Assembly: GCF_014656135.1 (NCBI RefSeq)
Contig: NZ_BNBV01000014.1
Coordinates: 62,001-126,000 of the forward strand
Direction of reading: 5' to 3'
Source: Streptomyces thermodiastaticus
GTDB taxonomy: Bacteria; Actinomycetota; Actinomycetes; Streptomycetales; Streptomycetaceae
DNA: 64,000 nt
Every line of letters begins with the position of its first letter. The stretch's first letter is position 1. Below, one piece after another: positions 21,524 to 59,372 of the stretch. The notes under the pieces are model-generated. The model was not told where the DNA came from. It did not search any database and saw nothing but the letters and a program-made list of their open reading frames with translations. The position numbers and the translations under genes were made by a program.

Positions 21524-21552
21524 ATGACAGCAATTGCGGTGATCAGTACGTT
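21524..21552 (+). promoter_or_regulatory. Promoter of secreted-protein paralogue 1
   Basis: ATGACA, 17-nt spacer, TACGTT. The same pair and the following TACGTTC-ATCA-GCGTCGGC-like block occur before both other paralogues, so conservation supports the call. Confidence 0.65.
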
Positions 21553-21615
21553 CGATCATGCGTCGGCCGACACAGCCGATCACTCTCTGAGTCCGAGACA
21601 GGAGCAGAAGCGACC

Positions 21616-22203
21616 ATGATCATGAAGCGTTCCCACGCGATCACCGCGGGTATCGCGGCCGCCGCGGCACTGACCGCGACCGGCATCACCTACGCCACGG
21701 CCGCCCCCGCCCCCGAGGCGGCCCCGGCCGTGCAGGCGGCCCCGGCCCCCGCACCCGCCCAGGCCCCTGCGCCCGCGCAGGCCCCCATGGGCGGTGACAA
21801 CGGAAACAACAACAGCAAGGGCAACGAGGGCGACGACCACGACGACTACGACGACTACGACCACGACAAGGGTGGCCACCACCGCGACAAGAAGCACGAC
21901 GAGGGGTGGATCCACATCAACGAGCGGTCGTACTCGGCGCACCCCACCGGCTGCGTCACCGTCGTGAGCGGACTGGGCTCCAAGAGCTTCAACATCCGCA
22001 ACGACAGCCACAAGACCGTCGAGGTGTTCCGCGGCGCCACCTGCGACAACGGCGCCCCGATCGCCACCGTCGGCCCCCACAGCACCAGCAACGGTGTCGA
22101 CCCGGGCTGCTTCCGCGGCGTCAAGGTCAAGGACGGCGTGGTGGCCAGCTTCCGGATCGTCCACCGTCACGACCACGACGGGGGTGGCAAGGGCGACTAC
22201 TGA
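21616..22203 (+). CDS. Small secreted protein, Asp/His-rich linker (paralogue 1 of 3)
   Basis: 195 aa. Signal peptide HAITAGIAAAAALTATGITYATAAPA, then an Ala/Pro spacer, a GGDNGNNNSKGNEG segment and a very acidic, His-rich linker. The C-terminal domain starts GWIHINERSYSAHPTGC and continues SFNIRNDSHKTVEVFRGATCDNG. Two cysteines shared by all three paralogues could form a disulfide. Function is unknown; the Asp/His linker might bind metal. Either ATG 21616 or 21622 could start it; GACAGGAG is upstream. The 43.9 kb and 58.7 kb genes are paralogues with the same promoter and terminator elements. Confidence 0.85.
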   Translation: MIMKRSHAITAGIAAAAALTATGITYATAAPAPEAAPAVQAAPAPAPAQAPAPAQAPMGGDNGNNNSKGNEGDDHDDYDDYDHDKGGHHRDKKHDEGWIHINERSYSAHPTGCVTVVSGLGSKSFNIRNDSHKTVEVFRGATCDNGAPIATVGPHSTSNGVDPGCFRGVKVKDGVVASFRIVHRHDHDGGGKGDY

Positions 22204-22244: not shown

Positions 22245-22271
22245 CCCCGGCCAGCCGTAATCGGGCCGGGG
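22245..22271 (+). terminator. Terminator of secreted-protein paralogue 1
   Basis: CCCCGGCC and GGCCGGGG enclose a loop containing GCCGTAATC. The same hairpin and loop sequence follow the other two paralogues. Confidence 0.7.
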
Positions 22272-34053: not shown

Positions 34054-34133
34054 GGCCGCCCGGGCACACCCCACGGTCCGCTGCCGCGGCGACCGGCGCC
34101 GAACTCCCCTTCCGCGGGCGGCACCGGAGCCGG

Positions 34134-34211
34134 ACGGCCCTGCCCACGGCTCAGAGGAGAGCTCAGAGGAGAACGGCCCTGCCCACGGCTCAGAGGAGAG
34201 CTCAGAGGAGA
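34134..34211 (+). repeat. Perfect 39-bp tandem duplication before the GAP1-like gene
   Basis: Two identical abutting 39-nt units (34134-34172, 34173-34211). Each contains two TCAGAGGAG segments, giving four Shine-Dalgarno-like sequences before the ATG at 34226. The unit length is a multiple of three. Confidence 0.85.
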
Positions 34212-43836: not shown

Positions 43837-43866
43837 ATGACAGCTTCGATGCGGTGTGAGTACGTT
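43837..43866 (+). promoter_or_regulatory. Promoter of secreted-protein paralogue 2
   Basis: ATGACA, 18-nt spacer, TACGTT, conserved with paralogues 1 and 3. Confidence 0.65.
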
Positions 43867-43924
43867 CATCACGCGTCGGCTGCGAGAGCCGAGCTCTCCG
43901 ACTCGAGACAGGAGAAACAGTGCC

Positions 43925-44461
43925 ATGATCATGACCCGTTCCCACGCGATCACCGCGGGCATCGCGGCCGCCGCGGCACTGACCGCGACCGGCATCACCT
44001 ACGCGACGGCCGCTCCCTCGCCCCAGTCGGCCCCGGCTGCCGCCGTGCAGGTCCCCGCTCAGGCCCCCATGGGCGGTGACAACGGAAACAACAACAGCAA
44101 GGGCAACGAGGGCAACGACCACGACGACCACGACAAGGGCCACAAGAAGCACCGCAAACACCACCGCGAGGGCTGGATCCACGTCAACGAGCGGTCCTAC
44201 TCGGCCCACCCCAGCGGCTGCATCACCGTCATCAGCGGACTGGGCTCCAAGACCCTGAACATCCGCAACGACAGCCACAAGACCGTCGAGGTCTTCCGCG
44301 GCGCCACCTGCGACAACGGCGCCCCCATCGCCACCGTCGGCCCGCACAGCACCAGCAACGGCGTCGACCCCGGCAAGTTCGACTCCGTCAAGGTCAAGGA
44401 CGGCGTGATCGGCAGCTTCCGGATCGTCCACGACCACCGCCACGGCAAGGACGACCACTGA
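43925..44461 (+). CDS. Small secreted protein, Asp/His-rich linker (paralogue 2 of 3)
   Basis: 178 aa. Near-identical to the 21.6 kb paralogue in the signal peptide (HAITAGIAAAAALTATGITY) and in the C-terminal domain (GWIHVNERSYSAHPSGC, LNIRNDSHKTVEVFRGATCD). The Ala/Pro spacer is shorter and the acidic linker is richer in Lys/His (DDHDKGHKKHRKHH). ATG 43925 is followed by a second ATG two codons later; ACAGGAGAAA is upstream. Function unknown. The close identity in coding and flanking DNA shows recent duplication from, or conversion with, paralogue 1. Confidence 0.87.
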   Translation: MIMTRSHAITAGIAAAAALTATGITYATAAPSPQSAPAAAVQVPAQAPMGGDNGNNNSKGNEGNDHDDHDKGHKKHRKHHREGWIHVNERSYSAHPSGCITVISGLGSKTLNIRNDSHKTVEVFRGATCDNGAPIATVGPHSTSNGVDPGKFDSVKVKDGVIGSFRIVHDHRHGKDDH

Positions 44462-44500: not shown

Positions 44501-44535
44501 GGTGCCCCGGCCCGCCGTAATCGGGCCGGGGCACC
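44501..44535 (+). terminator. Terminator 1 of secreted-protein paralogue 2
   Basis: A perfect 14-bp stem (GGTGCCCCGGCCCG with its complement) around the loop CCGTAAT. Confidence 0.8.
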
Positions 44536-44559
44536 GCGGACAGACGCAGAACATGGAAT

Positions 44560-44584
44560 CCCGGCCCGCCGTAATCGGGCCGGG
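44560..44584 (+). terminator. Terminator 2 of secreted-protein paralogue 2
   Basis: CCCGGCCCG and CGGGCCGGG around the same CCGTAAT loop, followed by CTTCT. It repeats terminator 1 after 24 nt. Confidence 0.75.
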
Positions 44585-46468: not shown

Positions 46469-47452
46469 TCAGAAGCCGACGGCGACCAGCAGCCACTGCG
46501 GGTTGTCGTGCGACACGTAGGAGGACTGGTCCGCCACGTCGTCGTACGGGAAGCCGTAGGCGAGGCCGTTCAGGGCGTTGTCGTGCCAGAACTTGGCGTA
46601 GTAGTTCGCCGGCTCGGCCGAGTAGAACTGCGCGGGGTCGTGCTGCTGGTTCGCCGGCAGCGTCGCCACGTGCCGGTTCAGGGCCGCGCACCGCTCGGCG
46701 TCACCGGCCAGCGGGCCGGCGCAGCTGAAGATGTCGGCGGTCGACGCGTTCACGCCGGCGGACTGGGCGTAGGCCGTGAAGTAGTCGGCGTTGGCACCGC
46801 CGGGGCGGAAGCTCGGGTCGCTTGCCGGGGCGATGATCCGGTAGGGCGCCTGCGACTGGGCCAGCACCTTGAAGGGCTGCGGGACGGAGTCGATGAAGCG
46901 CTGGAAGGTGGTGGCGCGATCCTCGGTGAACAGCTGCCGGCTGTCACCCACCTCCACGTCGTAACCGTCCTTGGTGTGCAGACGCATCGCGAGCGGCAGG
47001 CCGTAGGCGTCCACCCGCGTGGTGTTCCCGTTGAAACGGTTGTCGCCGACGGTGAACTCGATGAAGTCGTAGTACGGGCCGTCGGGAGACCCGAGGTGGA
47101 AGTACATGCGGCCCGAGGAGTTCACCGGCATGTCGAGGTAGGGCTGCTCCGCGATGGAGTGCGTCTCCCCGTTGAACGTCCAGTACACCTGGTCGTCGGG
47201 GTACGCGCCGTTCGTGCGGTTGAGCACCTTCACCTGCAGGACGTTCTGCGCGGGCGGGATGTTCGAGGTGTCGCCCCAGAAATCGTCGGTGATCTTTCCG
47301 CCGCTCGGTGCCGGGCCGTCGGCCCGTGCGGGCGCCTGCGTCAGGGTGAAGAAGCAGGCGGCGAACAGCGCGAGCACCAGAGCAAGAGCTGTGCGGGTGC
47401 GGGCGGCGCCGGTCAGGTGTGCAGGCGCCGGCATGCGGGGGGAAGTCGGCAT
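46469..47452 (-). CDS. Secreted GH64 beta-1,3-glucanase
   Basis: 327 aa from ATG 47452 with GGAG 5 nt upstream. Signal peptide ALALVLALFAACFFTLTQAPARA. The GH64 domain fills the rest: VYWTFNGETHSIAEQPYLDM, then PVNSSGRMYFHLGSPDGPYY, NGNTTRVDAYGLPLAMRLH and IIAPASDPSFRPGGANADYF. GH64 enzymes cut beta-1,3-glucan, often releasing laminaripentaose, and attack fungal cell walls. The palindrome GAGAGCGCTCTC is 53 nt upstream of the start, in a region shared with the divergent chitin-related genes. A remnant of a duplicate of this gene's 5' end lies near 50.0 kb. Confidence 0.92.
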   Translation of the reverse strand: MPTSPRMPAPAHLTGAARTRTALALVLALFAACFFTLTQAPARADGPAPSGGKITDDFWGDTSNIPPAQNVLQVKVLNRTNGAYPDDQVYWTFNGETHSIAEQPYLDMPVNSSGRMYFHLGSPDGPYYDFIEFTVGDNRFNGNTTRVDAYGLPLAMRLHTKDGYDVEVGDSRQLFTEDRATTFQRFIDSVPQPFKVLAQSQAPYRIIAPASDPSFRPGGANADYFTAYAQSAGVNASTADIFSCAGPLAGDAERCAALNRHVATLPANQQHDPAQFYSAEPANYYAKFWHDNALNGLAYGFPYDDVADQSSYVSHDNPQWLLVAVGF

Positions 47453-47504
47453 GCGGTCTCCAGTACGAGAGGCCCGTGGGGGGACAGGGAAACCCGGGAA
47501 GTCG

Positions 47505-47516
47505 GAGAGCGCTCTC
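47505..47516. promoter_or_regulatory. LacI-type palindrome, GH64 / RICIN-DPBB intergenic region
   Basis: GAGAGCGCTCTC, related to CebR/CelR-type operators (GGGAGCGCTCCC). Repeated at 50142-50155 in the duplicated block. Confidence 0.6.
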
Positions 47517-47714
47517 AAGACGTTTGTACCGCCACCTCACGCATCCGTCAACAACTGAACACATACACAAGGGAGTTGCGTGCGCCCCGTCGCCCCCTTC
47601 CCGCCGCGAACGCGACATGCGGCACATGCTGTGCCGTTCCGGCGGTTCACGGCCGGTACATGTCTTCGACTCCTGCACGGGACGGAACGTCAGAAAGCTT
47701 TAATCTTCTACGAC

Positions 47715-47744
47715 TTGACGCTGTTTGGTCCAGACCTTTAGGTT
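47715..47744 (+). promoter_or_regulatory. Chitinase-type promoter with DasR/dre-like box
   Basis: TTGACG, 18-nt spacer, TAGGTT. Within the spacer is TGGTCCAGACCT (47726-47737), the 12-bp box described in Streptomyces chitinase promoters and related to DasR-responsive elements. Confidence 0.7.
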
Positions 47745-47860
47745 CCGGGTCGGCAGCGCAACCTCCCCCCAGCCGCGACGTGGTCGCCGTTGTCGCGTGG
47801 ACGCGCCGTCAGCTTCGTCAACAATCATTCCGACAACTGAAAGAGTGTGAACCTCCAGCC

Positions 47861-48703
47861 ATGGTCGGACACTCTCCGAACCGCTCGACCGTCGTGAAGA
47901 GCGGTCTGGCGGCGACCGTGCTCGCCCTGTCGGCGGCCCTGATGACCGCCGCTCCGGCTCAGGCCGCCACCGGCTCCATCACCGGCCTGGACGGCAAGTG
48001 CCTCGACGTGGCGGGCGCCAGCTCCGCCAACGGCACCCCCGTACAGATCTACGACTGCAACGGCACCAACGCCCAGCAGTGGACCGTCGGCTCCGACGGC
48101 ACCATCCGCGCCCTCGGCAAATGCCTCGACGTCGTCGACCGGTCCACCGCCGACGGCGCCAAGGTGCAACTGTGGGACTGCACCGGCGGCGCCAACCAGC
48201 AGTGGGTCGTCACCGCGGCCCACGACATCGTCAACCCGGCCGCCGACAAGTGCCTGGACGTCACCGACCGCAACAGCGCCAACGGCACCCGCGTCCAGAT
48301 CTGGACCTGCACCGGCGGCTCCAACCAGAAGTGGAACGCACCGGCCACCGGCGGCGGCACGGGCGGTGGCGGCGGCGACACGGACACCTGCTGGGCGACC
48401 CACTACGGGCCCGAGCCGGCCGGCGCCCTGACGGCCAGCGGCGAGCTGTTCGACAACAACGCCGACACCGCGGCCACGTCGCTCAGCCGCAACCCGCAGC
48501 TGCCGTTCGGGACGCAGGTGAAGGTGACCAACGTCGCCAACGGCCGCTCTCTGATCGTCCGGATCAACGACCGCGGCACGTTCGCCTACACGCCGCAGGA
48601 ACCCAAGTGCCTCGACCTGACCGACGGCGCCTTCAGCCGGCTCGGCGGCAGCCTCAACCCGGACGACGGCCACATCGTCGTCACCGAGCAGGTGCTCGGC
48701 TGA
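47861..48703 (+). CDS. Secreted RICIN lectin plus RlpA-like DPBB protein
   Basis: 280 aa. A signal peptide ends ALMTAAPAQA. A ricin B-type lectin domain (about 38-160) has three QxW-type repeats (AQQWTVG, NQQWVV, NQKWNA). After a Gly-rich linker, a double-psi beta-barrel of the RlpA/expansin type follows (CWATHYGPEPAGALTASGEL, FGTQVKVTNVANGRSLIVRI then NDRGTF). Such proteins bind polysaccharide and loosen cell-wall material without necessarily being enzymes. The RICIN-coding DNA (47945-48360) is identical to that in the following chitinase gene. A decayed copy is at 50.5 kb. The Shine-Dalgarno is weak. Confidence 0.88.
   Translation: MVGHSPNRSTVVKSGLAATVLALSAALMTAAPAQAATGSITGLDGKCLDVAGASSANGTPVQIYDCNGTNAQQWTVGSDGTIRALGKCLDVVDRSTADGAKVQLWDCTGGANQQWVVTAAHDIVNPAADKCLDVTDRNSANGTRVQIWTCTGGSNQKWNAPATGGGTGGGGGDTDTCWATHYGPEPAGALTASGELFDNNADTAATSLSRNPQLPFGTQVKVTNVANGRSLIVRINDRGTFAYTPQEPKCLDLTDGAFSRLGGSLNPDDGHIVVTEQVLG
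47945..48360 (+). repeat. 416-bp repeat, copy 1 (RICIN domain)
   Basis: By direct reading this is identical to 48862-49277 (offset 917). It covers the end of the signal peptide and the whole lectin domain. Confidence 0.85.
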
Positions 48704-48762
48704 CGTCCGCACCGGGCCGGTGATCCCAGCCGGCCTTCCCTCCCTTCGTTCAAGGAGACATC

Positions 48763-49908
48763 TTGTCCGTTTCCGCCCCCCGCAGGGGACTGTTCAGACG
48801 CCTCGGCCTGCGCCGGGCCACGTTCGGCGCCGCGGCCGCCGGCCTCCTCGCCGCCCTGTTCACCGCCGCTCCGGCTCAGGCCGCCACCGGCTCCATCACC
48901 GGCCTGGACGGCAAGTGCCTCGACGTGGCGGGCGCCAGCTCCGCCAACGGCACCCCCGTACAGATCTACGACTGCAACGGCACCAACGCCCAGCAGTGGA
49001 CCGTCGGCTCCGACGGCACCATCCGCGCCCTCGGCAAATGCCTCGACGTCGTCGACCGGTCCACCGCCGACGGCGCCAAGGTGCAACTGTGGGACTGCAC
49101 CGGCGGCGCCAACCAGCAGTGGGTCGTCACCGCGGCCCACGACATCGTCAACCCGGCCGCCGACAAGTGCCTGGACGTCACCGACCGCAACAGCGCCAAC
49201 GGCACCCGCGTCCAGATCTGGACCTGCACCGGCGGCTCCAACCAGAAGTGGAACGCACCGGCCACCGGCGGCGGCACCACCGTGCCGTCGGGCTTCGTGG
49301 TCTCCGAGGCCCAGTTCAACCAGATGTTCCCGAACCGGAACCCGTTCTACACCTACCAGGGTCTGGTCCAGGCGCTCAGCGCGTACCCGGGCTTCGCCAA
49401 CACCGGCGACGACACGACGAAGAAGCAGGAAGCCGCCGCCTTCCTGGCCAACGTCAGCCACGAGACCGGCGGCCTGGTGTACGTGGTCGAGCAGAACACC
49501 GCCAACTACCCGACGTACTGCGACTGGAGCCAGCCCTACGGCTGCCCGGCCGGTCAGGCCGCCTACTACGGCCGCGGCCCCATCCAGCTGAGCTGGAACT
49601 TCAACTACAAGGCCGCGGGTGACGCGATCGGCGTGGACCTGCTGAACAACCCCTGGCTGGTCGAGAACGACCCGGCGATCGCCTGGAAGACCGGCCTGTG
49701 GTACTGGAACACCCAGTCCGGCCCCGGCACCATGACCCCGCACAACGCCATGGTCAACCACGCCGGCTTCGGCCAGACCATCCGCTCCATCAACGGCTCC
49801 CTGGAGTGCGACGGCCGGAACCCCGCGCAGGTGCAGAGCCGCGTCGACGCCTACCAGCGCTTCACCTCCATCCTCGGAGTGAGCCCGGGCAACAACCTGT
49901 ACTGCTGA
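48763..49908 (+). CDS. Secreted RICIN-GH19 chitinase
   Basis: 381 aa from TTG 48763, AAGGAG 7 nt upstream. Basic signal peptide ending FTAAPAQA, a RICIN lectin domain (about 40-165), a short GGGTT linker and a GH19 catalytic domain. The catalytic Glu is in FLANVSHETGGLVYVVEQNT; GCPAGQAAYYGRGPIQLSWN and CDGRNPAQVQSRVDAYQRF are further GH19 signatures. It hydrolyses chitin with inversion and is typically antifungal. Second gene of the RICIN-DPBB/chitinase unit, about 60 nt after it. Its catalytic-domain DNA is repeated almost perfectly in the next chitinase gene. Confidence 0.94.
   Translation: MSVSAPRRGLFRRLGLRRATFGAAAAGLLAALFTAAPAQAATGSITGLDGKCLDVAGASSANGTPVQIYDCNGTNAQQWTVGSDGTIRALGKCLDVVDRSTADGAKVQLWDCTGGANQQWVVTAAHDIVNPAADKCLDVTDRNSANGTRVQIWTCTGGSNQKWNAPATGGGTTVPSGFVVSEAQFNQMFPNRNPFYTYQGLVQALSAYPGFANTGDDTTKKQEAAAFLANVSHETGGLVYVVEQNTANYPTYCDWSQPYGCPAGQAAYYGRGPIQLSWNFNYKAAGDAIGVDLLNNPWLVENDPAIAWKTGLWYWNTQSGPGTMTPHNAMVNHAGFGQTIRSINGSLECDGRNPAQVQSRVDAYQRFTSILGVSPGNNLYC
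48862..49277 (+). repeat. 416-bp repeat, copy 2 (RICIN domain)
   Basis: Second copy of 47945-48360. Confidence 0.85.
49294..49908 (+). repeat. 615-bp repeat, copy 1 (GH19 domain)
   Basis: Matches 50995-51609 (offset 1701) with only two differences that I can see, both silent. Confidence 0.88.
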
Positions 49909-49932
49909 TCCGCTCCTGAGCAGCGACACCAT

Positions 49933-49965
49933 GTGTGCCCACGGCAGGAAACGCCGTGGGCACAC
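49933..49965 (+). terminator. Terminator after the RICIN-GH19 chitinase gene
   Basis: A perfect 13-bp stem (GTGTGCCCACGGC with its complement) and a 7-nt loop. Confidence 0.8.
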
Positions 49966-49994
49966 GTGCTGTTTCCACCGCCGGCGCCGGGGAC

Positions 49995-50090
49995 GCGCGA
50001 TCAGGCCGTGTTCCCTCACGCGGACAGCCGCCCTGGTGCGAGCGGCGCCGGACAAGGATTCCGGCGCCGGCCTGTGGGGGAGGTCGGCAT
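49995..50090 (-). pseudogene. Remnant of a duplicated GH64 5' end
   Basis: On the minus strand from ATG 50090 the sequence reads MPTSPTG, and in the adjacent frame SGAARTRAAV, matching the MPTSPR and TGAARTRTAL start of the GH64 precursor. The rest of the gene is absent. It marks the left end of the duplicated block. Confidence 0.6.
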
Positions 50091-50141
50091 GGGGTCTCCA
50101 GTACCGGAAGGGCCTGTGGGGGGACAGGGGACGCACACGGC

Positions 50142-50155
50142 TGAGAGCGCTCTCA
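50142..50155. promoter_or_regulatory. Duplicated LacI-type palindrome
   Basis: TGAGAGCGCTCTCA, a perfect 14-bp palindrome in the same relative position as 47505-47516. Confidence 0.6.
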
Positions 50156-50354
50156 CGATGAGTTGTACCGCCACCGCTCGCACCCGTCAACGCCTGAACG
50201 CGGACGGAGATCTCCCCTCATCGCTCGTCACCCACCCGCCCGCCATAAACGTGATGCAGCGCACATGTGTGCCGCTTCCGGTGGTCCACGGCCGGCACGC
50301 CCTTCTCCTCGACTGCACCGGACACGACGTCAAAAACCTTGCTGAATTCAACAC

Positions 50355-50383
50355 TTGACGCCAGTGGTGCAGACCTTTAGGTT
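50355..50383 (+). promoter_or_regulatory. Duplicated chitinase-type promoter
   Basis: TTGACG, 17-nt spacer, TAGGTT, with the degenerate box TGGTGCAGACCT at 50365-50376. It now precedes the pseudogene and the second chitinase. Confidence 0.6.
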
Positions 50384-50492
50384 CCAGAGCGACAGCGCTA
50401 CCTGCCTCAGATGCGGCTGTGTCGCCGTCGCCCGGTGGGCGCGCCGTCGTCTTTGCCCCCCACCCCCCATTGAAAGAGTGTGAACCCCCACC

Positions 50493-50740
50493 ATGGCAGG
50501 ACACTCTTCGACCCGTTCGGCCACCGTGACGAGTGGTTTAGCAGCGACCGTGCTCACCGTGCCCACGGGCCTGACGACCGCCTCCCCCGTTCAGGCCGCC
50601 GTCGGCACCATCACCTGCTTCGCCGACGAGTGCCCCGACATCGCGGGGGCCGCCTCGGCCCACGGCATCTCCGTGTAGTCCAGGACTGCCTCGATCCGGA
50701 CGACGGCCACATCGTCGTCACCGAGCAGCTGCTCGGCTGA
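50493..50740 (+). pseudogene. Decayed copy of the RICIN-DPBB gene
   Basis: It begins MAGHSSTRSATVTSGLAATV, parallel to MVGHSPNRSTVVKSGLAATV of the intact gene, runs into the start of the lectin domain (CFADECPDIAGAASAHG) and stops at 50678. In another frame the last residues PDDGHIVVTEQLLG match the end of the DPBB domain. Nearly the whole lectin and DPBB are deleted. Confidence 0.82.
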
Positions 50741-50799
50741 CGTGCGCATCAGGCCGGTGATGCCATCCGGCCTGCTCTTCCTCTCTTCAAGGAGCGATC

Positions 50800-51609
50800 T
50801 TGACTGCTTCCACCACCCGTCAGGGACTCTCGGCCCGACGCCTCGGCCTGCGCCGGGCGACGCTCGGCGTCGCGACGGCCGGTCTTGTCGCCGCCATGTT
50901 CACGGTCGGGCCGGCCCAGGCCGCGACCGGCCCCGTCGCCGGCAGCACCCACGTGAGCGCGTCGGCCGCCGGCAGCGACGCGATCCAGGCGAACTTCGTG
51001 GTCTCCGAGGCCCAGTTCAACCAGATGTTCCCGAACCGGAACCCGTTCTACACCTACCAGGGTCTGGTCCAGGCGCTCAGCGCGTACCCGGGCTTCGCCA
51101 ACACCGGCGACGACACGACGAAGAAGCAGGAGGCCGCCGCCTTCCTGGCCAACGTCAGCCACGAGACCGGCGGCCTGGTGTACGTGGTCGAGCAGAACAC
51201 CGCCAACTACCCGACGTACTGCGACTGGAGCCAGCCCTACGGCTGCCCCGCCGGTCAGGCCGCCTACTACGGCCGCGGCCCCATCCAGCTGAGCTGGAAC
51301 TTCAACTACAAGGCCGCGGGTGACGCGATCGGCGTGGACCTGCTGAACAACCCCTGGCTGGTCGAGAACGACCCGGCGATCGCCTGGAAGACCGGCCTGT
51401 GGTACTGGAACACCCAGTCCGGCCCCGGCACCATGACCCCGCACAACGCCATGGTCAACCACGCCGGCTTCGGCCAGACCATCCGCTCCATCAACGGCTC
51501 CCTGGAGTGCGACGGCCGGAACCCCGCGCAGGTGCAGAGCCGCGTCGACGCCTACCAGCGCTTCACCTCCATCCTCGGAGTGAGCCCGGGCAACAACCTG
51601 TACTGCTGA
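50800..51609 (+). CDS. Secreted GH19 chitinase without lectin domain
   Basis: 269 aa from TTG 50800, AAGGAG about 6 nt upstream. The signal peptide (ATLGVATAGLVAAMFTVGPAQA) is diverged from its neighbour's, and a short linker (THVSASAAGSDAIQ) replaces the RICIN domain. The GH19 domain is identical in protein sequence to that of the 48.8 kb chitinase, including SHETGG. Differences between the two genes are thus confined to secretion signal and substrate-binding module. It is downstream of the decayed RICIN-DPBB gene and probably uses that gene's promoter. Confidence 0.94.
   Translation: MTASTTRQGLSARRLGLRRATLGVATAGLVAAMFTVGPAQAATGPVAGSTHVSASAAGSDAIQANFVVSEAQFNQMFPNRNPFYTYQGLVQALSAYPGFANTGDDTTKKQEAAAFLANVSHETGGLVYVVEQNTANYPTYCDWSQPYGCPAGQAAYYGRGPIQLSWNFNYKAAGDAIGVDLLNNPWLVENDPAIAWKTGLWYWNTQSGPGTMTPHNAMVNHAGFGQTIRSINGSLECDGRNPAQVQSRVDAYQRFTSILGVSPGNNLYC
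50995..51609 (+). repeat. 615-bp repeat, copy 2 (GH19 domain)
   Basis: Second copy of 49294-49908. Confidence 0.88.
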
Positions 51610-58632: not shown

Positions 58633-58661
58633 ATGACAGGTATGAGGGGGCTGAGTACGTT
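58633..58661 (+). promoter_or_regulatory. Promoter of secreted-protein paralogue 3
   Basis: ATGACA, 17-nt spacer, TACGTT, followed by CGGTCACACGCCGGC, as in the other two paralogues. Confidence 0.65.
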
Positions 58662-58724
58662 CGGTCACACGCCGGCCGTCACCGCCGGCGCCGCACCGAC
58701 TCCGGGACCAGGTAAGGCAGTGCC

Positions 58725-59294
58725 ATGTTCACGAACCGTTCCTATGTGTTCAACACGAGCGTCGCGACGGCGGCGGCCCTGACCGCGGCCGGCATCACCT
58801 ACGCCACGACCACCCCCGCCCACGACGCCCGGATGACCCCGGCCGCCGTCCGCCAGGCTCCCGCGCAGGCACCCCAGGGCAAAGACTCCGGCTCGAGGAA
58901 CAGCTCCGGCGAGGACGGCGGCCGGGACGGCGAAGGCGACGGCCACGGCGGCGGGGACGGCCGGCGGGACCGGCACGACGACCACGACGAGGGCTGGATC
59001 CACATCAACGAGCGGTCCTACTACGCCCACCCCGCCGGCTGCATCACCGTGATCAGCGGTCTGGGGGCCACGAGCCTGAACATCACCAACGACAGCCGCC
59101 GCACCGTCGAGATCTACCGCGGCGTGACCTGCGACGGCGGCGCCCCGATCGCCACCGTCGGCCCCCGCAGCTCCACCCACGGCATCGTCCCCGGGCCCGT
59201 CGACGGCATCTACGTGAAGGACGGCATCGCGGGCAGCTTCCGCGTCGTCGACGACGAGTACCACGACGCCGCGGATCACGACGACGACCTCTGA
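58725..59294 (+). CDS. Small secreted protein, Asp/His-rich linker (paralogue 3 of 3)
   Basis: 189 aa. A more diverged member. Signal peptide VFNTSVATAAALTAAGITYA, a linker rich in Asp, Gly, Arg and His, then GWIHINERSYYAHPAGC and LNITNDSRRTVEIYRGVTCD with the same two cysteines. The C-terminus ends in a run of acidic and His residues. ATG 58725; AGGTAAGG upstream. Function unknown. Shared regulatory flanks show it belongs to the same family expansion. Confidence 0.85.
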   Translation: MFTNRSYVFNTSVATAAALTAAGITYATTTPAHDARMTPAAVRQAPAQAPQGKDSGSRNSSGEDGGRDGEGDGHGGGDGRRDRHDDHDEGWIHINERSYYAHPAGCITVISGLGATSLNITNDSRRTVEIYRGVTCDGGAPIATVGPRSSTHGIVPGPVDGIYVKDGIAGSFRVVDDEYHDAADHDDDL

Positions 59295-59341: not shown

Positions 59342-59372
59342 GGCCCCGGCCCGCCGTAATCCGGCCGGCGCC
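59342..59372 (+). terminator. Diverged terminator of secreted-protein paralogue 3
   Basis: GGCCCCGGCCCG-CCGTAAT-CCGGCCGGCGCC pairs with two C-C mismatches. The CCGTAAT loop is kept although the stem has decayed. Confidence 0.6.

What the first reader, a model, noticed from the sequence alone, without database searches (positions are those of the whole stretch)
21616..22203. Family of small secreted proteins with Asp/His-rich linker, three paralogues in 37 kb
Genes at 21.6, 43.9 and 58.7 kb encode the same layout: signal peptide, Ala/Pro spacer, acidic His-rich linker and a compact C-terminal domain (GWIHxNERSY...GC...TCD). I recognise no named domain. Dispersed copies with clear divergence in linker but not in the core point to selection on the core domain. 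Metal binding by the linker is possible.
Basis: partly seen in the sequence, partly recalled or inferred. Interest (0 to 1): 0.58.

Follow-up and report, generated by a model that had tools for sequence, protein, structure and literature searches.

The report
Tethered crystallin-like secreted proteins of Streptomyces
A scattered, unnamed family of small secreted Streptomyces proteins, each made from the same self-contained gene unit with hairpins at both ends, looks like a remote cousin of known protease-inhibitor and antimicrobial proteins; its real job has not been tested.

Summary
Three intact paralogues lie at 21616-22203, 43925-44461 and 58725-59294; the genome has a fourth (contig C6) and a fifth apparently split by a contig break. 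The family is unnamed: no Pfam or NCBIfam match over a cut-off, no PDB sequence relative. It occurs in 23 of 297 sampled genomes of its taxonomic family, 2 of 17 genera, often in several copies.

The C-terminal domain is probably a remote branch of the crystallin-like secreted proteins (peptidase inhibitor I36, MiAMP1); the link runs through an unannotated bridging family, and the direct test failed. And each window copy is one stereotyped unit: sigma-70-like promoter, covarying 5' hairpin, ORF, 3' hairpin with a CCGNAAT-type loop. The 5' element gave 32 strong hits in 150 genomes, all beside family genes, and two weak ones elsewhere.

Metal binding by the linker is not a family trait: 18 of 100 linkers reach 10% His. 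Best reading: a tethered, disulfide-stapled extracellular inhibitor or antimicrobial domain. The fold relationship is moderately supported; the function is inferred only.

The parts
21524..21552 (+). copy 1 promoter: -35-like ATGACA 21524-21529, 17-nt spacer, -10-like TACGTT 21547-21552
   Evidence: sequence read; family-wide conservation
21562..21580 (+). copy 1 5'-UTR hairpin (6 pairs, 21562-21567 with 21575-21580), near the expected transcript start
21600..21604 (+). copy 1 ribosome-binding site AGGAG
   Evidence: sequence
21616..22203 (+). copy 1 ORF, 195 aa: signal peptide, Ala/Pro spacer, acidic linker, beta domain
21904..22161 (+). copy 1 core domain (86 aa)
   Evidence: predicted all-beta, mean pLDDT 84.8
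22245..22271 (+). copy 1 3' hairpin with CCGTAAT loop
43837..43866 (+). copy 2 promoter: ATGACA 43837-43842, 18-nt spacer, TACGTT 43861-43866
   Evidence: sequence read
43876..43892 (+). copy 2 5'-UTR hairpin TCGGCT/AGCCGA
43925..44461 (+). copy 2 ORF, 178 aa
44171..44428 (+). copy 2 core domain
44505..44531 (+). copy 2 first 3' hairpin, CCGTAAT loop
44560..44584 (+). copy 2 second 3' hairpin, CCGTAAT loop
58633..58661 (+). copy 3 promoter: ATGACA 58633-58638, 17-nt spacer, TACGTT 58656-58661
   Evidence: sequence read; R1 hit, this copy not used in training
58670..58690 (+). copy 3 5'-UTR hairpin, 7 bp CGCCGGC/GCCGGCG
   Evidence: R1 hit
58725..59294 (+). copy 3 ORF, 189 aa, the most divergent window copy
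58992..59249 (+). copy 3 core domain
   Evidence: second model mean pLDDT 72.9
59343..59371 (+). copy 3 3' hairpin with CCGTAAT loop

Best explanation
A lineage-specific, multi-copy family of small secreted proteins. Each is exported by the Sec route (inferred from the signal peptide). Outside the cell it carries an 85-90 residue all-beta domain, probably pinned by one disulfide between the two invariant cysteines, on a flexible hydrophilic tether. The domain is probably a remote branch of the beta/gamma-crystallin-like secreted proteins that include peptidase inhibitor I36 and MiAMP1 (inferred through a bridging family). The most likely action is to bind and block an extracellular target such as another organism's protease, or to act as an antimicrobial (inferred; not tested). 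Each gene is a stand-alone unit: a sigma-70-like promoter, a stem-loop close to the 5' end of the message, a strong ribosome-binding site, the ORF, and a strong 3' hairpin with a conserved loop. This looks built for a long-lived, well-translated single-gene mRNA (unit shown by comparison; expression effect inferred).
For: Unit: in 57 sequences the 7-bp 5' hairpin has 93.2% of cells paired (89.0% in shuffles), 5 of 7 pairs changed on both sides (2.9; 8 of 500 shuffles reach it) and 37 two-sided cells (12.2; 0 of 500); slid versions are at most 43% paired. Relaxed promoter in 79 of 98 upstream regions against 0.13 in shuffles; -10 plus hairpin in 73 of 98 against 2.4. Model R1 gives exactly five hits at E up to 5 in the own genome, the five copies, three of which were not used in training. 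3' hairpin: 73 of 79 seven-nt loops fit [CT][CT]GNAAT, with G, A, A, T the same in all 73; 26 of 64 long hairpins near family genes carry it and 0 of 106 elsewhere in the 0.95 Mb scanned. Domain: all-beta model, pLDDT 84.8, pTM 0.77. Family-to-bridge hhalign score 31.7, prob. 81, against 11.4 reversed and at most 19.9 in 100 column shuffles; bridge-to-I36 score 32.9, prob. 87, against 7.9 reversed and at most 14.0 in 100 shuffles. In Pfam, 9 of 21 bridge members match Inhibitor_I36 (best E 6e-4) and 6 of 21 MiAMP1 (best E 0.002), listed at E up to 1. MiAMP1 is also among the weak structural rows, Z 3.7, rmsd 3.0, 60 aligned. Accessory character: 23 of 297 family genomes; 23 of 29 copies within 15% of a chromosome end; 14 of 72,556 plasmid records.
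Against: Direct family-to-I36 comparison is not significant: scores 15-18, while a reversed control gave 18.7 and 4 of 60 shuffles of the I36 subfamily reached the observed 15.15. With the de-duplicated 21-row bridge alignment the family-to-bridge link drops to prob. 52, score 26.8. The bridge was picked by eye from weak hits (its own E 0.135). No Foldseek PDB match has E at or below 0.001; best VIA Z is 4.6, to a list of assorted beta proteins headed by a C-terminal fragment of Clostridium perfringens enterotoxin; the second model is weaker and gave none. No activity, expression or secretion data exist here. Core dN/dS of 0.5-1 does not show a strongly constrained active site. In the hairpin test, the count of further pair types (12) was reached by 46 of 500 shuffles, and 19 of 98 members lack the relaxed promoter pattern.
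Confidence: 0.45

Rival explanations
1. A structural or surface protein of hyphae or spores: the linker and beta domain coat or decorate the cell surface, in the way chaplins do, with no inhibitor activity.
For: Multi-copy, secreted-type, small, stereotyped expression unit. Low-complexity tether.
Against: Patchy presence: 13 of 150 genus genomes. Chromosome-end and plasmid location. No chaplin match among the Pfam matches. No cell-wall anchor seen by eye in the sequence. The promoter looks sigma-70-like, not like the sigma-BldN sites that I recall for chaplins.
Confidence: 0.2
2. A small secreted carbohydrate-binding protein (a free binding module), comparable in role to Cgt of Actinoplanes, a highly expressed secreted single CBM20 domain (start of the abstract of PMC7275007 seen in the listing).
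For: All-beta model. CBM36 chains among the weak structural rows, Z 3.6, rmsd 3.1-3.2, 72 aligned.
Against: Z is tied with many other folds; no CBM sequence match in Pfam.
Confidence: 0.15
3. A metal-binding or metal-buffering secreted protein, with the Asp/His linker as ligand.
For: Window copies have His/Asp-rich linkers and tails; sub-threshold ZrgA hit for copy 2, E 0.035, 14.5 bits against a cut-off of 27.4.
Against: 18 of 100 linkers have at least 10% His and 25 of 100 have none; the linker has the highest dN of the three regions in all three window pairs.
Confidence: 0.07
4. The conserved ends mark a mobile or copy-prone DNA cassette, and the protein is its passenger.
For: In S. shenzhenensis (10 pairs) the copies share one left edge, about -245 to -252 from the proper start, behind which the five flanks do not align; in S. 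griseoluteus (6 pairs) likeness runs only from about -273..-334 to +255..+335.
Against: The other genomes among the 80 same-genome pairs listed vary widely: longer shared flanks in bungoensis, spinosus and G142, shorter ones in older pairs; own-genome copies share only about -91..-140 upstream. The ends are also a normal promoter and terminator. No transposase or terminal repeats were noticed, but no systematic search for them or for target-site duplications was made.
Confidence: 0.13

Closest known systems
Peptidase inhibitor family I36 (PF03995)
   Same: Small secreted Streptomyces protein; in the (not significant) direct alignment with an I36 subfamily both cysteines and the N-x(13)-C spacing fall in register; linked through the bridging family
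   Different: No PF03995 match; lacks the N-terminal C-x(5)-C stretch; has a long tether, an NER motif and a variable insertion before the last strand
MiAMP1 (PF09117), plant antimicrobial with a crystallin-like fold (fold class recalled)
   Same: 6 of 21 bridge members match at E up to 1, best 0.002; weak structural row Z 3.7
   Different: No direct sequence match; different kingdom; no tether (recalled)
Unannotated bridging family of small secreted Streptomyces proteins (L219-L243)
   Same: Signal peptide, about 75-80 residue domain, two invariant cysteines, N-x-T motif in register with NDS
   Different: No hydrophilic linker and no NER motif in the sequences read; 20 of 199 genus genomes, own genome none
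Chaplins and rodlins
   Same: Multi-copy small secreted Streptomyces proteins (recalled)
   Different: No chaplin match; distribution and promoter differ (promoter comparison recalled)

Membership tests
Peptidase inhibitor I36 (PF03995) | Match to the Pfam model over its curated score | tested here: not met
   0 of 3 whole proteins and 0 of 25 cores listed it; one plasmid homologue also none
Peptidase inhibitor I36 (PF03995) | N-terminal cysteine pair C-x(5)-C seen in the I36 subfamily fetched here | tested here: not met
   no such pair in the 25 cores of A1 against the I36 subfamily sequences
Peptidase inhibitor I36 (PF03995) | Direct profile-profile similarity | tested here: inconclusive
   scores 15.0-17.6, not above controls; supported only through the bridge
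Peptidase inhibitor I36 (PF03995) | Inhibition of metalloproteases (recalled for SMPI) | not testable with these tools
   needs purified protein
beta/gamma-crystallin-like fold (I36, MiAMP1) | Fold shown by structure comparison | tested here: inconclusive
   Foldseek none at E up to 0.001; MiAMP1 1c01 Z 3.7, rmsd 3.0, 60 aligned, tied with other folds; second model none of 40 chains at Z 2 or more
Chaplins | Pfam chaplin domain | tested here: not met
   not among Pfam matches of 3 whole proteins or 25 cores
His-rich metal binders (ZrgA type) | Pfam/NCBIfam ZrgA model over its cut-off | tested here: not met
   14.5 bits against 27.4, copy 2; 10.8 against 185, copy 1
Known RNA families (5' and 3' elements) | Rfam model over its gathering score | tested here: not met
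   0 matches in the window; only a sub-threshold F6 hit on the opposite strand over the first 3' hairpin of copy 2, E 0.43

The most novel reading that the evidence does not exclude
The whole unit of about 1.1 kb is a discrete copy-prone cassette of streptomycete chromosome ends and plasmids. Its 5' hairpin and its 3' hairpin with the conserved CCGNAAT-type loop are recognised by a dedicated factor (an RNA-binding regulator or a copying enzyme). It spreads a fast-diversifying, tethered crystallin-like effector arsenal used in competition between neighbouring strains.
Probability: 0.12. Interest if true: 0.75.

Novelty: new variant of a known kind. Interest (0 to 1): 0.5.

Why it matters
It turns several 'hypothetical protein' genes per genome into one recognisable family with a testable fold and a testable activity. 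It also supplies a 5' element that marks its members more sharply than their divergent linkers do. A terminator-like hairpin whose loop is conserved as strongly as its stem is unusual and calls for an RNA-level explanation. If the inhibitor or antimicrobial reading is right, this is an unexplored accessory arsenal in Streptomyces and Kitasatospora.

Tried and rejected
Rejected or led nowhere. (1) Direct homology to I36 by profile comparison: not above reversed and shuffled controls. (2) Foldseek and VIA on two models: no clear fold; crystallin chains did not appear among the rows shown apart from MiAMP1, which proves nothing. (3) Phage or viral origin: 0 of 50,697 phage records; 58 pattern matches in viral contigs, none confirmed. 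(4) ECF or BldN-type promoter: the element reads better as ATGACA-N17-TACGTT (my reading; sigma consensus recalled); in some members with a 9-nt shorter region an upstream GATATGAC repeat could restore the spacing (my reading). (5) Conserved gene neighbourhood: the neighbouring frames differ at the three window copies and on two plasmids of 14; not examined further. (6) Literature: seven searches that ran (listings only, no paper opened) showed no description of the family; the sequence-string search gave 0 papers. The library lacks most subscription journals.

Rows dropped. Family set: 137 ORF hits; 13 whose signal did not fit my pattern were left out (some are fragments, some merely different), and repeats were removed, leaving 100. 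Upstream set: 15 of the 100 had no matching -10/RBS; 84 distinct ones were kept, and I chose 57 rows (55 loci, 2 window copies) for A4; copies 58725, C6 and C50 were not in it. Some start codons were placed too far upstream by my script (45 nt in four S. shenzhenensis copies); this was allowed for in reading. A2 to A3: two rows with X removed before the structure job (59 to 57), and A5 holds 55 chosen rows; 98 rows; 97 genes with at least 100 nt downstream. One search searched L035-L113 and the window only. I36 comparisons: 30 loci and 27 of 30 loci. Chromosome-position count: the nine genomes with 1-2 contigs, sizes as rounded there; the others left out; copies are not independent.

Full report
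What is there. The three genes exist as described: 21616-22203, 43925-44461 and 58725-59294, all on the + strand. Each encodes a signal peptide, an Ala/Pro spacer, a hydrophilic linker and an 86-residue core followed by a short charged tail. A search of the window's own 6.1 Mb assembly gives these three, a fourth on contig C6 (E 2e-32) and the first part of a fifth at the end of contig C50 (E 2e-19); the next hit is E 0.13. Contig C19 opens with what reads as the charged tail of such a gene and two of the family's 3' hairpins, so the assembly probably broke inside a repeated gene.

Distribution. With the single protein, 13 of 150 genomes of the genus carry the family. With a 25-row profile, 23 of 297 genomes of the taxonomic family do (2 of 17 genera), and 2 of 396 of the phylum, both of the same genus; all these counts include the own genome. 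The genome-contig scan confirmed 191 of 296 pattern matches and kept the best 80 (79 loci); these 79 are all Streptomyces or Kitasatospora by title, as are the 14 of 72,556 plasmid records (13 and 1). Phages: none; viral contigs: none confirmed. That the window is Streptomyces is my inference from these relatives. Up to ten matches occur in one genome. In the nine genomes that are in one or two contigs, 23 of 29 copies lie within 15% of an end (binomial P 6e-8 against 30%, copies not independent). In a tree of 99 cores, 21616 and 43925 sit together with an S. mexicanus copy (100/95); the C6 copy falls in another group of six (100/99); 58725 is in no well-supported set. Old subfamilies and recent duplication therefore both contribute; many forks are unresolved.

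The transcription unit. Upstream regions align across the family...CCCGATCGGC...GATATGACA-N17-TACGTTC, then a short inverted repeat, then AGACAGGAG-AAG and the start codon. In the window the -35/-10 spacing is 17, 18 and 17 nt. A relaxed promoter pattern occurs in 79 of 98 upstream regions (shuffles 0.13 on average, at most 2), and a -10 followed by a hairpin in 73 of 98 (shuffles 2.4, at most 6). Nineteen of 98 lack the relaxed promoter. On 57 sequences the 7-bp stem pairs in 93.2% of cells (shuffles 89.0), 5 of 7 pairs show changes on both sides (shuffles 2.9; 8 of 500 reach 5) and 37 cells do so (12.2; 0 of 500); the number of further pair types, 12, is reached by 46 of 500 shuffles. Sliding the partner by 1 to 3 columns drops pairing to at most 43%. 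Three of the pairs have 6-8 unpaired sequences each. The tool warns that related sequences can exceed shuffles without structure, so the slid control matters more. Frequent G-U steps fit RNA rather than a DNA palindrome (inference). A covariance model of promoter, hairpin and RBS finds exactly the five copies in the own genome at E up to 5; three of them were not in the training set. In 150 genus genomes it gives 34 hits at E up to 0.01. By coordinates, the 32 at E 1.2e-5 or better all adjoin family genes on their 5' side; the two others (E 9e-4 and 2e-3) are in genomes without the family. All 13 genomes with the family are hit. One of the 33 family places, a short frame at G142:C44, has no hit. 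Thirteen of the 57 training rows come from these same genomes. No Rfam family reaches its cut-off.

The 3' end. A strong hairpin follows most genes (91 of 97), mostly starting 20-60 nt after the stop. Of the 97, 79 have one with a 7-nt loop, and in 73 of these the loop fits [CT][CT]GNAAT, with G, A, A and T the same in all 73. The stem is nearly as fixed: four of its inner eight pairs never vary in the 73. In L032 three stem pairs are changed on both sides and the loop is kept. In 0.95 Mb of loci and window, 26 of 64 long hairpins near family genes have this loop and 0 of 106 elsewhere do, 32 of those having 7-nt loops. In the own genome the motif with at most one mismatch occurs six times: four behind the window copies and two on C19, taken as the fifth copy's; two further hits with 2 and 3 mismatches are elsewhere, and the backwards control pattern gave 2. 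Of same-genome paralogues, 80 pairs were compared. In S. shenzhenensis all ten pairs share one left edge near -250 and in S. griseoluteus the six pairs end near -273..-334 and +255..+335. Elsewhere edges vary, with longer shared flanks in bungoensis, spinosus and G142 and only -91..-140 upstream in the own genome. This could mean a copy-prone cassette in some lineages, but it is open.

The protein. In 57 cores, N9 E10 R11, C20, C50, D51, S85, F86, R87 and others (model numbering) are invariant. Seventy-one of 100 members have only two cysteines after the signal peptide, which suggests one disulfide. AlphaFold2 gives an all-beta model, mean pLDDT 84.8 and pTM 0.77, though the five models vary (84.8 to 46.4); a second run from copy 58725 gives 72.9 and 0.62 with mostly similar strands. 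Foldseek finds nothing at E up to 0.001 in the PDB. VIA's best Z is 4.6 and the list is a mixture of beta folds (enterotoxin C-terminal fragment, CUB, CBM36, cupredoxin, MiAMP1 at Z 3.7); the second model gives none. Pfam and NCBIfam have no model that reaches its cut-off.

Remote relationship. A looser profile search gave nine weak hits, one of which (L210, E 0.135) is a 127-aa frame with the same N-x(13)-C spacing. Searching with it gave a divergent, unannotated set of small secreted Streptomyces proteins in 20 of 199 genomes. Profile comparison of the family with this set scores 31.7 (prob. 81), against 11.4 for the reversed set and a maximum of 19.9 in 100 column shuffles; a 21-row version scores 26.8 (prob. 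52). The set matches the I36 sample at 32.9 (prob. 87; reversed 7.9, shuffles at most 14.0). Nine of its 21 members match Pfam Inhibitor_I36 (best E 6e-4) and six match MiAMP1 (best E 0.002), listed at E up to 1. Split in two, the halves score prob. 70 and 41 against the family and 82 and 85 against I36, without controls of their own. A PDB search with the set gave no crystallin or I36 chain (best E 0.022, a designed protein). The direct family-to-I36 comparison is not significant. I therefore treat the crystallin-like relationship as probable, not shown, and do not file the family as I36, since the Pfam score and the N-terminal cysteine pair are not met.

How it most likely works. Shown by comparison: a secreted-type precursor, a conserved single-gene unit with hairpins at both ends, an accessory multi-copy distribution. 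Inferred: a stable, abundant message; export; one disulfide; a tether that lets the domain work away from where it is held or simply keeps it soluble; binding and blocking of an extracellular target. The variable stretch before the last strand, which in L032 holds a long E/H-rich insert, would be a natural contact loop (inference). Core dN/dS of 0.48-1.00 and linker 0.76-1.42 for the window copies fit loose constraint or diversification, with the warning that codon bias distorts dS.

Verdict. The reading 'novel domain under selection, possibly metal-binding' is partly right: unnamed yes, metal-binding unlikely as a family role. The new points are the probable link to the crystallin-like inhibitor/antimicrobial group and the family-specific 5' and 3' elements.

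Noticed in passing
window 46508-51609: Cluster of secreted genes that share blocks: a ricin-lectin plus DPBB frame, a ricin-lectin plus GH19 chitinase (48763-49908) and a GH19 chitinase (50800-51609); a 300-nt lectin block is 99% and a 300-nt GH19 block 95% identical between genes, which suggests a recent domain shuffle.
   Followed up: partly
window 34127-34204: A 39-nt direct tandem repeat, 92% identical.
   Followed up: no
own genome contigs C50 (end) and C19 (start): The assembly seems to break inside the fifth family copy, perhaps because near-identical cores collapse.
   Followed up: partly
L032 (G117): Family member with a long Glu/His/Gly-rich insertion before the last strand of the core, and a 3' hairpin with three changed stem pairs but the same loop.
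   Followed up: partly
G067 C1:117904 and C1:9491964: Two family copies in opposite orientation near the two ends of one chromosome, 93% identical over 1.3 kb; perhaps terminal inverted repeats.
   Followed up: no
L207 (G024:C8:238941): A frame with IFRGFTCDNDAPVITAGPG, which looks like a decayed relic of the family.
   Followed up: no
G124 C1:3237105 and G009 C1:3686841: Weak hits of the 5' element model (E 9e-4 and 2e-3) in genomes without the protein family; chance or other genes with the element.
   Followed up: no
L219-L243: An unannotated, divergent family of small secreted Streptomyces proteins with two invariant cysteines and weak I36 and MiAMP1 matches.
   Followed up: partly
window 44505-44584: Copy 2 has two nearly identical 3' hairpins in tandem; other members do too, for example L040, L051 and L041.
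   Followed up: no
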